NCBI RefSeq assembly: GCF_900109195.1
Contig: NZ_FNZG01000006.1
Coordinates: 1 to 64,000, forward strand
Direction of reading: 5' to 3'
Source: Pseudooceanicola nitratireducens
Lineage (GTDB): Bacteria; Pseudomonadota; Alphaproteobacteria; Rhodobacterales; Rhodobacteraceae
Length of the DNA stretch: 64,000 nt
Notes under the pieces: model-generated
The model's input: only the letters and a program-made list of their open reading frames with translations
The model's database searches: none
Told to the model about the DNA's origin: nothing
Made by a program: the position numbers and the translations under genes
Shown: one piece after another, positions 51,393-64,000 of the stretch
Layout: each line of letters opens with the position of its first letter
Position numbering within the stretch: the first letter of the stretch is position 1

Positions 51393-52487
51393 GTGAAAAA
51401 GGCCCTAATTACTGGCATTACGGGGCAGGACGGCTCCTACCTGGCTGAATTTCTTCTGGAAAAAGGGTACGAGGTCCACGGGATCAAACGACGCTCGAGC
51501 CTGTTCAATACCGAACGTGTGGATCACATCTATCAAGACCCGCATGTCGATGATCAGCGCTTTATTATGCATTATGGCGATCTGACAGATACCTCGAACC
51601 TGGTGCGGATCGTGCAGCAGGTCCAGCCGGACGAGATCTACAACCTTGGTGCGCAAAGCCACGTCGCGGTCAGCTTCGAGGTGCCGGAATACACCGCCGA
51701 TGTGGACGCCATCGGCACCCTGCGGCTGCTGGAAGCGATCCGCATTCTGGGTCTGGAGAAGAAAACGCGGTTCTACCAGGCCTCGACCTCGGAACTTTAC
51801 GGTCAGGTGCAGGAGGTCCCGCAGCGCGAAACGACGCCTTTCTACCCGCGCTCGCCCTATGCCGTGGCCAAGCTCTATGCCTATTGGATCTGCGTGAACT
51901 ACCGCGAGGCCTATGGGATCTATGCCTGCAACGGCATCCTCTTCAATCACGAAAGCGAACGCCGCGGCGAGACCTTCGTGACCCGCAAGATCACCCGAGG
52001 CCTGGCGAACATCAGCCAGGGCCTGGAAGACTGCCTGTACCTGGGCAACATGGACGCCCTGCGCGACTGGGGTCATGCCCGTGACTACGTCCGCATGCAG
52101 TGGCTGATGCTGCAGCAGGAGGTGCCCGAGGATTTCGTCATCGCCACCGGCCAGCAACGGTCGGTCCGCGAATTCGTCGAGATGAGCGCCGCGCGCCTTG
52201 GCATCACCCTGACCTGGAGCGGCGAGGGCGTTGACGAAATCGGCACCGTCACGGCGGTGGACGCCGCGATCTCGCCCTCGGTCAAGGTGGGCGACGTGAT
52301 CGTGCGCGTGGACCCCCGTTATTTCCGCCCGACCGAGGTTGAAACCCTTCTGGGCGACCCGACCAACGCCAAGCAGAAACTGGGGTGGGAGCCTGAGACG
52401 ACGCTGGAACAGATGGTCGACGAAATGGTCGCGGGCGATCTGAAGACGGCGCGCAAGGAAGCCTACCTTGCCACCAACTTCAAGTAA
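51393..52487 (+). CDS. gmd: GDP-mannose 4,6-dehydratase
   Basis: NADP-dependent short-chain dehydratase of 364 residues, making GDP-4-keto-6-deoxymannose, precursor of GDP-fucose, GDP-rhamnose or GDP-perosamine. The cofactor motif G-I-T-G-Q-D-G-S is at residues 8-15, and the catalytic set is Thr132, Glu134, Tyr156 and Lys160. GTG start with GAGGACC before it. First gene of the surface-sugar cluster. No fucose synthase or perosamine synthase is seen nearby. Confidence 0.95.
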   Translation: MKKALITGITGQDGSYLAEFLLEKGYEVHGIKRRSSLFNTERVDHIYQDPHVDDQRFIMHYGDLTDTSNLVRIVQQVQPDEIYNLGAQSHVAVSFEVPEYTADVDAIGTLRLLEAIRILGLEKKTRFYQASTSELYGQVQEVPQRETTPFYPRSPYAVAKLYAYWICVNYREAYGIYACNGILFNHESERRGETFVTRKITRGLANISQGLEDCLYLGNMDALRDWGHARDYVRMQWLMLQQEVPEDFVIATGQQRSVREFVEMSAARLGITLTWSGEGVDEIGTVTAVDAAISPSVKVGDVIVRVDPRYFRPTEVETLLGDPTNAKQKLGWEPETTLEQMVDEMVAGDLKTARKEAYLATNFK

Positions 52488-52497
52488 GGGTCCGGCG

Positions 52498-53004
52498 ATG
52501 CTGTTCCCCCGCCTCGAAACCGCACCGATCACCCTGGGCGACGACCGCGGCAAGGTCGAGATCCTCTATGAAACGGACCGGGTGGTGCTTAAACGCTCCT
52601 CTTCGTCCGCGGGGGTGTTCCGTGGGCTGCACCGGCAGATCGCCCCGCATCTGCAGGACAAAATCATTCGCGTGATCTCGGGGCGAATCATCGACTTCGT
52701 CACCAATCCCGACGATCCCGAAGACCCCATCTGGCACAGCGAAATCGGCCCCGAGGACGGCTGGGTGCATATCGCCGCCAAATATGCCCATGGCTTCTAT
52801 GCGCTTGAGGATGTGGTCTTCGAATATTTCTGCGAAGGCGGTTACATGGAAAGTGCCGAGGAAAGCTGGTACATCGCGCCTCAGGTCACCGAAATGCTGG
52901 GCGGCCGCCCGCTGCTTCTGTCCGACAAGGACCAGCACGGCACGCCCCTGCCCCGCCCGCTGAAACAAGCCCCGGATCATGTCCGCAGGAAGGATGCCGA
53001 ATGA
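52498..53004 (+). CDS. RmlC-like dTDP-sugar 3,5-epimerase family protein
   Basis: Cupin-fold epimerase-like protein of 168 residues. The RmlC signature is visible as F-R-G-L-H-R-Q (catalytic His45), followed by K-I-I-R-V-I-S-G-R-I-I-D and Y-A-H-G-F-Y-A-L. It may act on the 4-keto sugar made by Gmd, as an epimerase on a GDP-sugar. Start at ATG 52498, 10 bp after gmd. Its end overlaps the glycosyltransferase gene by four bases. Confidence 0.85.
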   Translation: MLFPRLETAPITLGDDRGKVEILYETDRVVLKRSSSSAGVFRGLHRQIAPHLQDKIIRVISGRIIDFVTNPDDPEDPIWHSEIGPEDGWVHIAAKYAHGFYALEDVVFEYFCEGGYMESAEESWYIAPQVTEMLGGRPLLLSDKDQHGTPLPRPLKQAPDHVRRKDAE

Positions 53005-62216: not shown

Positions 62217-63657
62217 CCTTCCCAAAGACCTGACGCAGGACGGCACAGGCACGGTTCTGCTCTATTCCATCCACCGGACCGAAGACTGGTTCCGCCACCT
62301 TGGTGAAAACATGGGCTTTGCCAAATCGGCGGTCGTCTCCTGCCTGCCGGGAGAGGGCGATCATAACGTCATCGCCGACTTCCAGCACCACCAGCGACGG
62401 TTCTACGCCGCCGATGCGCGGCACTCGGACCTTCTGGACGCCGCGACAGTCGCCGACATCGCCGCCCGCTGCCGCGTCCTGCGCTTCATGGGGGACCGGC
62501 GCGCCGCCGCGATGATCTTAGGCATGGCCGAGGCCATGGCGAAGGTTCTGGACGTGGTGCAACCGGATGTTATCGTGAGCTTCCCGATCGACCGCTATGT
62601 CTCGGACGTGCTGGAACATCTGGGCCGGGCGCGCGGTGTACCCTTCTATGAACTCACCGTGTCCGCGTTGAACGGCCAGTCCATGCTGATGCGCAAGGGC
62701 GCGCTGTGCCAGCACGGCCCCGACCCGGACCCCGCCCTGGTCGAGGCCGGCGTCGAGGAAATGGCGACCCCGCTGTTCAAACCCAGCTACGTCCAAGGCG
62801 TGGCGAATTTCACCGCCAAGCGCTGGCTCAAAGTATTTGCCTATTTCCGCCTGCGGGGGTTCGTCTTCTGGCTGATCTCGCTTCTGCATCGGGACCGGTT
62901 GAACCTGCATTACCTGGATGCGCAAAGCTTTCTGGGTCACAAGCCGCGGCTGTCGGACATGCGGATCGTCAACCTGGTCGACCGCGACTGGCGCGACAGC
63001 CTTGACGCCTTCCCCAAGGACCGTCGGCTGTTCATCGGCCTTGCGCTGTTTCCCGAGGCCTCGATCGACTACTGGATCCACGACCTGAAGCTGATCGAAT
63101 ACGAAGACGTCATCGTCGAGATGGCAACGGCCTTTTCCGATGCCGGATATCTGGTTCTGGTCAAGGACCATCCGCTGCAGTTCGGTTTCCGCCAGTGCGG
63201 GCTGATCGACCGTCTGCGCGCGATCAAAAACGTGAAATTTGTCCCCTACGAGGAAAACGGAACCGAGCTTCTGACCCTGTGCGGGGTCAGCTTCACCTGT
63301 ACCGGCACGCTTGGGTTGCAGGCGGCGCTTCTGGGGGCCAAGTCCATCGTGGTCGAGAATTACTATACAACGGATACGCGCGATTTCATCTTCCTGTCGG
63401 ACCGCGACAGGATCAAGGACCTGCCGGAAGAGGCCTCGTCGCGCGACTTCTCGACCGGGCTGGAAGATCGTCAGCGCCGCATCATCGCCAACCTGCTGCG
63501 CGGCAGCTTCGTCAGTGACTTCTTTTCCTTCGAAAAGTTCGACAAGACCAACCCCTCCCCCGGCGCGACCGAACTGGGCCACGTTCTGGGCCGTGAGGTC
63601 CGCGCGCTGATGGCTGAAGATGGTGCCTCGGCCCGACACAACGGCCGGGGCACCTAG
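62206..63657 (+). CDS. putative surface-polysaccharide protein, GT-B-like (capsule synthesis type)
   Basis: Protein of 483 residues that I do not recognise firmly. The C-terminal half has L-V-K-D-H-P-L-Q-F and then C-T-G-T-L-G-L-Q-A-A-L-L-G-A-K, a pattern seen in capsule-synthesis and GT-B-fold nucleotide-sugar enzymes (K-x-H-P, then a glycine-rich loop). A likely TTG start at 62206 overlaps the flippase end. Role is probably a transferase or processing step in the same glycan; identity uncertain. Confidence 0.6.
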   Translation: MQHDLPKDLTQDGTGTVLLYSIHRTEDWFRHLGENMGFAKSAVVSCLPGEGDHNVIADFQHHQRRFYAADARHSDLLDAATVADIAARCRVLRFMGDRRAAAMILGMAEAMAKVLDVVQPDVIVSFPIDRYVSDVLEHLGRARGVPFYELTVSALNGQSMLMRKGALCQHGPDPDPALVEAGVEEMATPLFKPSYVQGVANFTAKRWLKVFAYFRLRGFVFWLISLLHRDRLNLHYLDAQSFLGHKPRLSDMRIVNLVDRDWRDSLDAFPKDRRLFIGLALFPEASIDYWIHDLKLIEYEDVIVEMATAFSDAGYLVLVKDHPLQFGFRQCGLIDRLRAIKNVKFVPYEENGTELLTLCGVSFTCTGTLGLQAALLGAKSIVVENYYTTDTRDFIFLSDRDRIKDLPEEASSRDFSTGLEDRQRRIIANLLRGSFVSDFFSFEKFDKTNPSPGATELGHVLGREVRALMAEDGASARHNGRGT

Positions 63658-63756
63658 ACCTTGGCGGGAACCGCAAGTAACCTGCGCCGCGTTGCGGCCC
63701 CCGTCATTCCAAGGCGGTCACGCCTTCGCGCCCGTCATTGAAGCAAAGATATTCGC

Positions 63757-64000
63757 ATGCGATTTCATCCGGCAGTCTTGATGTTGATGGTCTGGGGCGG
63801 GGCGCATCTGGCCTTTTTCGTGCTGCCCTTCGAAATGGTCACGCGGCGCTTTGATCCAATCGGATTTCTTGTTCTTCTTGCCTTTCTGGGCACCTTCTGT
63901 GCCGGGGCCTACATTCAGATCGTCTGGGTGCGGTTCAGGCCCGTGACGCCCTTCGACTCCCTGCCCATGGGAAATGCGGATCTGCTGCTCAAGGCGCTGG
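63757..64000 (+). CDS. hypothetical membrane protein, 5' part (possible O-antigen polymerase)
   Basis: The first 81 codons of a gene cut by the right edge. It begins M-R-F-H-P-A-V-L-M-L-M-V-W-G-G and shows hydrophobic segments at about residues 7-24 and 37-58, with a short positive loop between. Two early helices, next to a flippase, suggest a Wzy-type polymerase, but only the first two helices are visible. The start codon is ATG 63757. Confidence 0.5.
   Translation, partial: MRFHPAVLMLMVWGGAHLAFFVLPFEMVTRRFDPIGFLVLLAFLGTFCAGAYIQIVWVRFRPVTPFDSLPMGNADLLLKAL

What the first reader, a model, noticed from the sequence alone, without database searches (positions are those of the whole stretch)
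51393..64000. Surface-glycan cluster activating an unknown CMP-sugar, with amidotransferase and lipid hydroxylase but no NeuB
Seen: CMP-sugar synthetase, WbpG/PseA-like amidotransferase, HisH- and HisF-like partners, sterol-desaturase-family protein, beta-helix acyltransferase, class III aminotransferase and SDR are in one rightward run with many ATGA overlaps. Known: the first four types occur together in acetamidino-sugar pathways. Inference: the missing NeuB-type synthase and the added oxygenase, aminotransferase and SDR point to an acidic sugar other than standard legionaminic or pseudaminic acid, perhaps with a lipid-type substituent.
Basis: partly seen in the sequence, partly recalled or inferred. 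Interest (0 to 1): 0.7.

Follow-up and report, generated by a model that had tools for sequence, protein, structure and literature searches.

The report
Legionaminic-type sugar cluster with extra aminase
A 20-gene surface-polysaccharide cluster in a bacterium appears to make an acidic sialic-acid-like sugar, and an extra dehydrogenase-aminotransferase pair that recurs in several bacterial phyla probably adds a third amino group to it, which would give genes to a sugar type so far known to us only from chemistry.

Summary
The gene run is real, but 'no NeuB' is an artefact of the window's edge. NeuB starts 1,994 bases right of 64000, in the same rightward run, followed by NeuC-, NeuD- and LegC-type enzymes and a sugar transferase. 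So this is a 20-gene, legionaminic-type nonulosonic acid (NulO) cluster with acetamidino genes (contig 51393-70820). The finding's own refuter is met. Its hunch that the sugar is non-standard survives for another reason. The class III aminotransferase (AT3) and the SDR form a recurrent pair: in a 55-member AT3 clade from several phyla, 50 have the SDR beside AT3 and 47 have NeuB nearby; in the 32 other relatives it is 1 and 2. Related SDRs without AT3 sit instead with a CMP-NulO synthetase and a Gfo/Idh oxidoreductase (5 of 7 plasmid loci read; a sixth is weak). EpaB, an SDR of this Pfam family, with EpaA converts pseudaminic acid to its C8 epimer (PMC12053666). My best reading: the SDR oxidises C8, AT3 aminates it, the CysE-fold protein acylates it. 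An 8-amino NulO is known from one fish-pathogen polysaccharide (review PMC3210612); I found no genes assigned to it. The sterol-desaturase-type protein is a rare accessory (3 of 55). No activity has been shown.

The parts
51393..52487 (+). gmd, GDP-mannose 4,6-dehydratase; first gene of the cluster
   Evidence: NCBIfam gmd 597.8 bits, cut-off 415
52498..53004 (+). RmlC-like dTDP-sugar isomerase family protein
   Evidence: PF00908 55 bits, cut-off 27; rmlC equivalog not reached
53001..53795 (+). family 2 glycosyltransferase
   Evidence: PF00535 88 bits
53799..54581 (+). CMP-nonulosonate synthetase (NeuA/LegF/PseF-like)
   Evidence: PF02348 78 bits; PseF 131.6 below cut-off 205.7; best solved relative is a CMP-Neu5Ac synthetase, 100.9 bits
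54578..55783 (+). N-acetyl sugar amidotransferase (WbpG/WbuX/PseA type), PP-loop SGGKDS and an extra CWHC motif
   Evidence: TIGR03573 341 bits, cut-off 203; motifs
55780..56403 (+). HisH-like glutaminase
   Evidence: TIGR01855 218 bits
56396..57169 (+). HisF/WbuZ-like partner
   Evidence: PF00977 205 bits; WbuZ 267, cut-off 299.7
57166..58098 (+). sterol-desaturase-family (FA_hydroxylase) membrane oxygenase; rare accessory of the cluster
   Evidence: PF04116 98 bits; histidine motifs HRAQH, HKTHH, HEVHH; same slot in two Brevundimonas loci among the loci examined
58095..58757 (+). CysE-fold acyltransferase with the catalytic-type His126; the Asp that precedes it in CysE is Val
   Evidence: AlphaFold pLDDT 96; CysE matches TM up to 0.72; two printed alignments to CysE proteins; V125 and H126 in 24 of 24 rows
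58776..60149 (+). class III PLP aminotransferase (AT3), proposed NulO C8 transaminase; Lys277 the expected PLP lysine
   Evidence: NF004856 601 bits, cut-off 486; K277 in 25 of 25 rows
60177..60965 (+). SDR dehydrogenase, proposed NulO C8 oxidase; Ser145, Tyr173, Lys177; acidic residue at position 37
   Evidence: PF13561 181 bits; the three catalytic-type residues in 20 of 20 rows, Asp 17 / Glu 3 at position 37
60984..62216 (+). Wzx-like flippase (putative)
   Evidence: PF13440 19.0, below cut-off 23; position in the cluster
62206..63657 (+). conserved protein without a family, candidate glycosyltransferase of the cluster
   Evidence: no Pfam or NCBIfam match; 66% identical in SC52 and G368
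63757..64000 (+). start of the Wzy-like polymerase gene (putative; to contig 65064). The cluster goes on to 70820: epimerase 65061-65990, NeuB 65994-67043, NeuC 67044-68171, NeuD 68168-68788, CBS-LegC 68791-70251, sugar transferase 70248-70820

Best explanation
The cluster builds and exports a Wzx/Wzy-type surface polysaccharide that holds a legionaminic-acid-like NulO. Family-supported steps: a UDP-4-keto-6-deoxy-GlcNAc (dehydratase elsewhere in the genome) is aminated by CBS-LegC, acetylated by NeuD/LegH, hydrolysed and 2-epimerised by NeuC/LegG, condensed with PEP by NeuB/LegI and CMP-activated by NeuA/LegF; the amidotransferase with HisH/HisF turns an N-acetyl into an acetamidino group. 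Inferred step: the SDR oxidises C8-OH of the NulO (free or CMP-linked) to a methyl ketone, AT3 transaminates it to an 8-amino group, and the CysE-fold protein acylates that amine. The product would be an amidinated 5,7,8-triamino-3,5,7,8,9-pentadeoxynonulosonic acid. The FA_hydroxylase is an optional later oxygenation whose target is unknown.
For: Complete NulO set in one run; a Polysacc_synt_2 dehydratase-type protein in the same genome (403 bits). AT3 and SDR are coupled: SDR within 2 kb on the same strand in 50 of 55 clade members against 1 of 32 other AT3 relatives; NeuB within 10 kb in 47 of 55 against 2 of 32 (tree); 3 of the 5 SDR misses are contig ends. Of the 50, 16 (the window's among them) show neither ptmE nor ptmF in the stretch held. 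In 5 of 7 plasmid loci read for other SDR relatives, AT3 is not found and a Gfo/Idh oxidoreductase above Pfam cut-off plus a CMP-NulO synthetase are there; a sixth has a weak Gfo/Idh match, 25.7 against 27. In print: EpaA/EpaB convert Pse to 8-epiPse, shown by NMR, and EpaB is an adh_short_C2 SDR; AciE, of the same family, goes with 8-epiAci (PMC12053666, PMC5595891); lgaABCDEF plus elaABC goes with 8-epiLeg (PMC9676051). With N at C5 and C7 and C9 deoxy, only C4 and C8 are free. An 8-amino-3,5,7,8,9-pentadeoxynonulosonic acid exists in nature (PMC3210612). Genes beside AT3 fit an installed amine: an omega-amidase-like CN hydrolase in 7 of 55, a methyltransferase in 4 of 55. FumI, which acts on a CH(NH2)-CH3 group (recalled), is among the nearest folds (rank 3).
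Against: No biochemistry and no structure of this polysaccharide. C4 is not excluded: 4-epi-legionaminic acid exists. In 18 of 55 clade loci a ptmF-like gene is present as well, so AT3 is not simply a replacement for it. NeuA and LegC miss their NCBIfam cut-offs, and no LegB lies in the cluster. The best solved matches of AT3 are glutamate-semialdehyde aminomutases. The amidotransferase subtype (CWHC) is not tied to the acyltransferase: of 12 further stretches fetched, 11 carry the CWHC motif and 0 show LbH, so a link of amidation to the new amine is unsupported. Two of the seven plasmid loci (L150, L151) carry the same cassette and are not independent. The printed L. pneumophila Sg6/12 gene tables name no SDR beside the AT3-type gene. 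I could not test whether the species with the known 8-amino sugar carries AT3 and SDR.
Confidence: 0.55

Rival explanations
1. Ordinary legionaminic acid with acetamidino group; AT3 and SDR belong to the PtmA/PtmE/PtmF segment that makes a dedicated GDP-linked precursor, not to a C8 change.
For: ptmE in 34 of 55 and ptmF in 18 of 55 AT3-clade loci within 10 kb; PtmA (an SDR, recalled) sits beside LegF in Plesiomonas (PMC4481668).
Against: 16 of the 50 AT3-SDR loci show neither ptmE nor ptmF in the stretch held, and none was found on the window's 89-kb contig; elaABC and epaAB link such genes to C8.
Confidence: 0.13
2. AT3 and SDR install the extra amine at C4 of the NulO instead of C8.
For: C4 is the other free hydroxyl; 4-epi-legionaminic acid exists (PMC5595891).
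Against: No C4-amino NulO turned up in my reading; related SDRs are linked to C8 change.
Confidence: 0.1
3. NeuB/NeuC make plain Neu5Ac, LegC/NeuD serve only the initiating bacillosamine-type sugar, and SDR/AT3 aminate C9 of Neu5Ac, much as KdnB/KdnA make Kdo8N (recalled).
For: NeuB and NeuC pass the NnaB and NnaA models; a Bac_transf sugar transferase ends the operon.
Against: DegT/LegC-type enzymes (150 aligned residues or more) are in 41 of 55 AT3-clade stretches against 2 of 32 others, and LegB plus LegC accompany two SDR relatives without AT3.
Confidence: 0.1
4. AT3, SDR and the CysE-fold protein make or transfer an amino- or hydroxy-acyl substituent (for example 3-hydroxybutyryl) put on N5 or N7.
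For: The SDR scores well with FabG-type and 3-hydroxyacyl models; hydroxybutyryl NulOs are known (PMC9676051 Table 7).
Against: 26 of the 50 AT3-SDR loci show no LbH in the stretch held, and the sugar acylation step already has NeuD.
Confidence: 0.1

Closest known systems
CMP-legionaminic acid pathway (Legionella, Campylobacter; LegB-C-H-G-I-F)
   Same: LegC-, NeuD-, NeuC-, NeuB- and NeuA-type enzymes in one operon, with PtmG/PseA-type amidation genes
   Different: No LegB in the cluster; LegC is fused to CBS domains; AT3, SDR, CysE-fold acyltransferase and FA_hydroxylase are added
Acinetobacter elaABC (8eLeg), aciABCD/aciAECD, epaAB (8ePse)
   Same: For aci and epa: an SDR in a module that acts on a finished 5,7-diamino NulO; EpaB and AciE are of the same Pfam family as the SDR here
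   Different: The partner here is an aminotransferase; in epaAB it is a cytidylyltransferase-aldo-keto reductase fusion. Sequences not compared here
Tenacibaculum (Flexibacter) maritimum O-polysaccharide sugar, 8-amino-3,5,7,8,9-pentadeoxynonulosonic acid
   Same: The proposed sugar class
   Different: No acetamidino group in the review passages seen; genes not assigned in the papers I could search; organism not tested here
Legionella pneumophila serogroup 6/12 O-antigen locus
   Same: Semialdehyde-aminomutase-type aminotransferase, CMP-NulO synthetase, acetyltransferase, HisF, HisH and NeuB listed together (PMC3694923)
   Different: Known only from the printed gene tables, which name no SDR beside the aminotransferase; sequences not compared
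Shewanella KdnB/KdnA (Kdo8N; recalled)
   Same: Alcohol oxidation followed by transamination on an ulosonic acid
   Different: Other enzyme families and an octulosonic acid

Membership tests
Legionaminic-type NulO pathway | NeuB/LegI synthase in the cluster | tested here: met
   TIGR03569 432.8, cut-off 399.7, at 65994-67043
Legionaminic-type NulO pathway | Hydrolysing 2-epimerase NeuC/LegG | tested here: met
   TIGR03568 392.8, cut-off 235.9
Legionaminic-type NulO pathway | LegC aminotransferase and LegH/NeuD acetyltransferase | tested here: inconclusive
   NeuD model met (185.8, cut-off 160.8); LegC best hit but 374, below 420
Legionaminic-type NulO pathway | 4,6-dehydratase (LegB) | tested here: inconclusive
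   None in the cluster (TIGR04180 89.7 and 41.3 for two cluster proteins, cut-off 475); a Polysacc_synt_2 protein at C19:752974, 403 bits
Legionaminic-type NulO pathway | CMP-NulO synthetase | tested here: inconclusive
   Family CTP_transf_3 met; PseF 131.6, below 205.7; substrate unknown
Acetamidino sugar system (WbpG/PseA + HisH + HisF) | Amidotransferase with HisH- and HisF-like partners adjacent | tested here: met
   WbuX 341 (cut-off 203), HisH 218 (cut-off 105), Pfam His_biosynth 205 (cut-off 23.6); consecutive genes 54578-57169; the WbuZ model itself 267, below 299.7
8-epi NulO modules (EpaAB, AciE-type) | adh_short_C2 SDR in one module with a CMP-NulO synthetase | tested here: met
   SDR PF13561 181 bits, in the same operon as NeuA
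8-epi NulO modules (ElaABC, EpaAB) | Second oxidoreductase partner (Gfo/Idh or aldo-keto reductase) | tested here: not met
   No ptmF-like match on the 89-kb contig, and no Gfo/Idh or aldo-keto reductase family appears in the hits listed for the cluster's proteins; hence not filed as a member
Glutamate-1-semialdehyde aminomutase (HemL) | hemL equivalog model | tested here: not met
   TIGR00713 182.6, far below 527.3; the NCBIfam PRK06209 subtype that bears the name is met
8-amino NulO biosynthesis | Product carries N at C8 | not testable with these tools
   Needs enzymology or NMR

The most novel reading that the evidence does not exclude
The AT3-SDR pair is a widespread genetic module that makes 8-amino (5,7,8-triamino) nonulosonic acids in Pseudomonadota, Bacteroidota, Nitrospirota, Bdellovibrionota and others, an unassigned pathway for a sugar class I know from one chemical report; this cluster makes a member of it that also carries an amidine, a combination I have not seen described.
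Probability: 0.45. Interest if true: 0.65.

Novelty: new variant of a known kind. Interest (0 to 1): 0.5.

Why it matters
NulOs are surface sugars that bacteria use in capsules, O-antigens and flagella, and their types are predicted from genes. If the AT3-SDR pair marks an 8-amino NulO, genes annotated 'glutamate-1-semialdehyde 2,1-aminomutase' in such loci are misnamed, an orphan sugar gets a testable pathway, and a third amine on the NulO side chain becomes predictable from sequence.

Tried and rejected
'No NeuB': rejected. 'Lipid substituent because of the sterol-desaturase protein': not supported as part of the core; not found in SC52, G368, Rhizobium terricola and Fluviibacterium, present in 3 of 55. 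The idea that it replaces the PhyH dioxygenase of relatives failed: both Brevundimonas loci with FAH also have PhyH.

Use of AT3 alone as a NulO marker is wrong: 32 of 87 AT3 relatives lie outside the NulO clade, and two that I read (L012, L013) are in CDP-sugar-type clusters with methyltransferase and PIG-L genes. Paper searches: 0 papers; 0; 2; 3; 36; 9; 23; mostly unrelated; 1; I saw the listings and passages of 14 papers, and none of what I saw assigns genes to C8 amination. The AT3 tree is a quick one with a midpoint root and no bootstrap. AT3 row left out of the tree: SC52, whose gene is in two pieces.
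Full report
WHAT IS THERE. The window is C11:1-64000 of a 4.06-Mb genome. From 51393 a run of genes on the + strand goes through the window's right edge to 70820: gmd, RmlC-like, GT2, neuA, wbpG, hisH, hisF, FA_hydroxylase, CysE-fold acyltransferase (LbH), class III aminotransferase (AT3), SDR, Wzx-like, an orphan candidate glycosyltransferase, Wzy-like, NAD epimerase, neuB, neuC, neuD, CBS-legC, Bac_transf sugar transferase. Of the 19 junctions 8 are 4-base overlaps, and all 20 frames are intact. 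The labels Wzx, Wzy and orphan glycosyltransferase rest on position and weak or no family matches.

PATHWAY. NeuB, NeuC and NeuD pass their NCBIfam cut-offs; the LegC-like enzyme is its family's best hit but under the cut-off (374, cut-off 420) and carries CBS domains; NeuA is under the PseF cut-off. No LegB-type dehydratase is in the cluster; the genome has a 701-residue frame with a Polysacc_synt_2 match (C19:752974, 403 bits), the family of PglF/FlaA1 (recalled). The legionaminic acid route (recalled, and summarised in PMC3766260 and PMC4481668, passages) then gives CMP-5,7-diacetamido-legionaminic acid. WbpG with HisH and HisF is the known type of acetamidino-forming set.

RELATIVES. I examined all 80. 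The tree has 87 rows: these 80, the window, G368 and five other loci; SC52's AT3, in two pieces, was left out. It splits at SH-aLRT 100 into a 55-row clade (48 labelled NulO; 7 not so labelled, because neither NeuB nor a NeuC-NeuA pair was found in the stretch held) and 32 others (3 labelled NulO).

THE PAIR. On the same strand within 2 kb of AT3, the SDR is found in 50 of 55 clade rows and in 1 of 32 others. The five misses are L028, L051 and L066, where the contig ends just after AT3, and L057 and L069, which look real. On the same strand within 10 kb: neuB 47 of 55 (others 2 of 32), neuC 41, neuD 40, legC 41, wbpG 23, ptmE 34, ptmF 18; LbH within 3 kb 23 of 55 (others 0 of 32); FA_hydroxylase 3 of 55. 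Since the LegC query carries CBS domains, I recounted with its DegT part alone, 150 aligned residues or more, either strand: 41 of 55 against 2 of 32. Of the 50 AT3-SDR loci, 43 also have neuB within 10 kb on the same strand, 26 show no LbH in the stretch held, and 16 show neither ptmE nor ptmF. ptmF and LbH nearly exclude each other: 17 loci with ptmF only, 24 with LbH only, 1 with both, 13 with neither (anywhere in the stretch held). In seven loci a CN hydrolase stands within 2 kb of AT3; the one I scanned is closest to PRK10438 (below its cut-off), which I recall as the omega-amidase YafV, a usual partner of glutamine transaminases. In four loci a methyltransferase stands there. In the window's order AT3 is rare: 4 of 390 genomes at E <= 1e-90, of which the window's genome and G368 are of this type, and LbH in the same 2 of 390 at E <= 1e-15.

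WHY C8. After the legionaminic route, C5 and C7 carry N and C9 is a methyl; C4 and C8 keep OH. In print, EpaA (cytidylyltransferase plus aldo-keto reductase) and EpaB (262 residues, adh_short_C2) turned Pse5Ac7Ac into its C8 epimer in a capsule, shown by NMR; AciE, 265 residues of the same Pfam family, goes with 8-epiacinetaminic acid (passages of PMC12053666 and PMC5595891). lgaABCDEF with elaABC goes with 8-epilegionaminic acid, ElaA being a putative oxidoreductase (passages of PMC9676051). The window's SDR is 262 residues, adh_short_C2, with Ser145, Tyr173 and Lys177 in 20 of 20 aligned rows and an acidic residue at position 37 in 20 of 20 (17 Asp, 3 Glu), which usually means NAD (rule recalled). 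I did not have the EpaB, AciE or Ela sequences to compare. I read the contexts of seven of the nearest plasmid SDR relatives outside SC52 (H117-H122 and H125; the two Klebsiella hits H123 and H124 were skipped, and 1,048 records matched in all). In six, AT3 is not found in the stretch and the SDR goes with a CMP-NulO synthetase; five of these have a Gfo/Idh protein above Pfam cut-off and the sixth (H117) a protein in that slot just under it (25.7, cut-off 27). H119 and H120 carry the same cassette, so these are fewer than six independent cases. In the seventh (Methylomagnum, H122) AT3 and SDR stand beside a NeuB-family gene. So the SDR type is shared and the partner differs: a second oxidoreductase where 8-epimers are expected, an aminotransferase here. 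I infer C8 oxidation followed by transamination. Shown: families, synteny, co-occurrence. Inferred: substrate, position, order of steps.

THE ACYLTRANSFERASE AND AT3. The LbH model (pLDDT 96.0) matches serine acetyltransferases (TM up to 0.72 by query length, 16-23% identity among the 50 rows listed). In the two printed alignments to solved CysE proteins the residue before the catalytic-type His is Asp in CysE and Val here; Val125 and His126 are in 24 of 24 rows. I take this as loss of serine binding (the role of that Asp is recalled) and use on another acceptor, probably the new amine; this is a guess from context. AT3 (pLDDT 83.9) is closest to glutamate-semialdehyde aminomutases and FumI. 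FumI works on a CH(NH2)-CH3 group (recalled), the same local chemistry as an 8-amino-9-deoxy side chain.

KNOWN CHEMISTRY. The review PMC3210612 (passages) reports, citing Vinogradov 2003 (not seen), that the O-polysaccharide of Flexibacter maritimus (now Tenacibaculum, recalled) holds an 8-amino-3,5,7,8,9-pentadeoxynonulosonic acid with two N-acyl groups. I found no paper that assigns genes to the 8-amino group in my ten searches, of which I saw listings, and passages of 14 papers; the library holds only part of the literature, and the O-antigen gene-cluster paper for that species is not held. The L. pneumophila Sg6/Sg12 O-antigen tables list a 'glutamate-1-semialdehyde 2,1-aminomutase', an acylneuraminate cytidylyltransferase, an acetyltransferase, HisF, HisH and NeuB together (section 10, part 1, of PMC3694923), without a function for the aminotransferase and without a named SDR beside it. 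Another paper calls Leg5Am7Ac the dominant residue of non-Sg1 strains (passages of PMC3766260). If it is their only NulO, that speaks against my reading, unless the Sg6-type NeuB set makes a further NulO.

AGAINST. No enzyme was tested. C4 remains possible. In 18 loci ptmF is present too. The scan was anchored on AT3 and capped at 80, so the counts describe the closest AT3 neighbourhoods, not all NulO clusters. The amidotransferase subtype turned out not to be specific (12 other stretches, 11 with the CWHC motif, 0 with LbH), so I do not claim that the amidine sits on the new amine. Among the loci examined the FA_hydroxylase occurs in the same slot, between hisF and LbH, only in two Brevundimonas loci (L030 50%, L043 40% identity); its target is unknown.

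VERDICT. A real, complete cluster of a known kind, with a recurrent and, as far as I could find, unassigned modification pair: a new variant of a known kind. Confidence 0.9 that it is a legionaminic-type NulO cluster with acetamidino genes, 0.55 that the pair aminates C8.

Noticed in passing
contig C11 78503-82351 (L002:15503-19351): Rep3-type replication initiator, ParA-type ATPase and a SopB-HTH partition protein 8 kb right of the cluster: the 89-kb contig is probably a plasmid or chromid, as in SC52, whose syntenic cluster is on plasmid pSC52_3.
   Followed up: partly
L010:18001-19376 (plasmid pSC52_3): The AT3 gene of SC52 is in two overlapping pieces in different frames and is not in the gene table: a frameshift or a sequencing error. 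Left as it is.
   Followed up: no
L010:22897-24003 and 25351-27342, and relatives: Relatives carry a PhyH-type dioxygenase (7 loci besides SC52) and an OafA-like acyltransferase-SGNH protein (3 loci and one partial match) that were not found in the window's cluster.
   Followed up: partly
L153 (Methylomagnum plasmid pRS11DPr1): AT3-SDR-NeuB-family-HAD hydrolase next to two transketolase halves: looks like a route to another amino-ulosonic acid.
   Followed up: no
L012, L013: The non-NulO AT3 relatives on these plasmids lie with a glucose-1-phosphate cytidylyltransferase, a SAM-dependent methyltransferase, an SDR and PIG-L (L012 also DUF4910): another unassigned amination in CDP-sugar clusters.
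   Followed up: no
L150 and L151: The same Gfo/Idh - CMP-NulO synthetase - SDR trio beside TniB/TniQ-type transposition genes on plasmids of two roseobacters: possibly a mobile sugar-modifying cassette.
   Followed up: no
window 62206-63657: Orphan 483-residue protein without any Pfam or NCBIfam match, conserved beside Wzx in the syntenic clusters; candidate NulO transferase.
   Followed up: no
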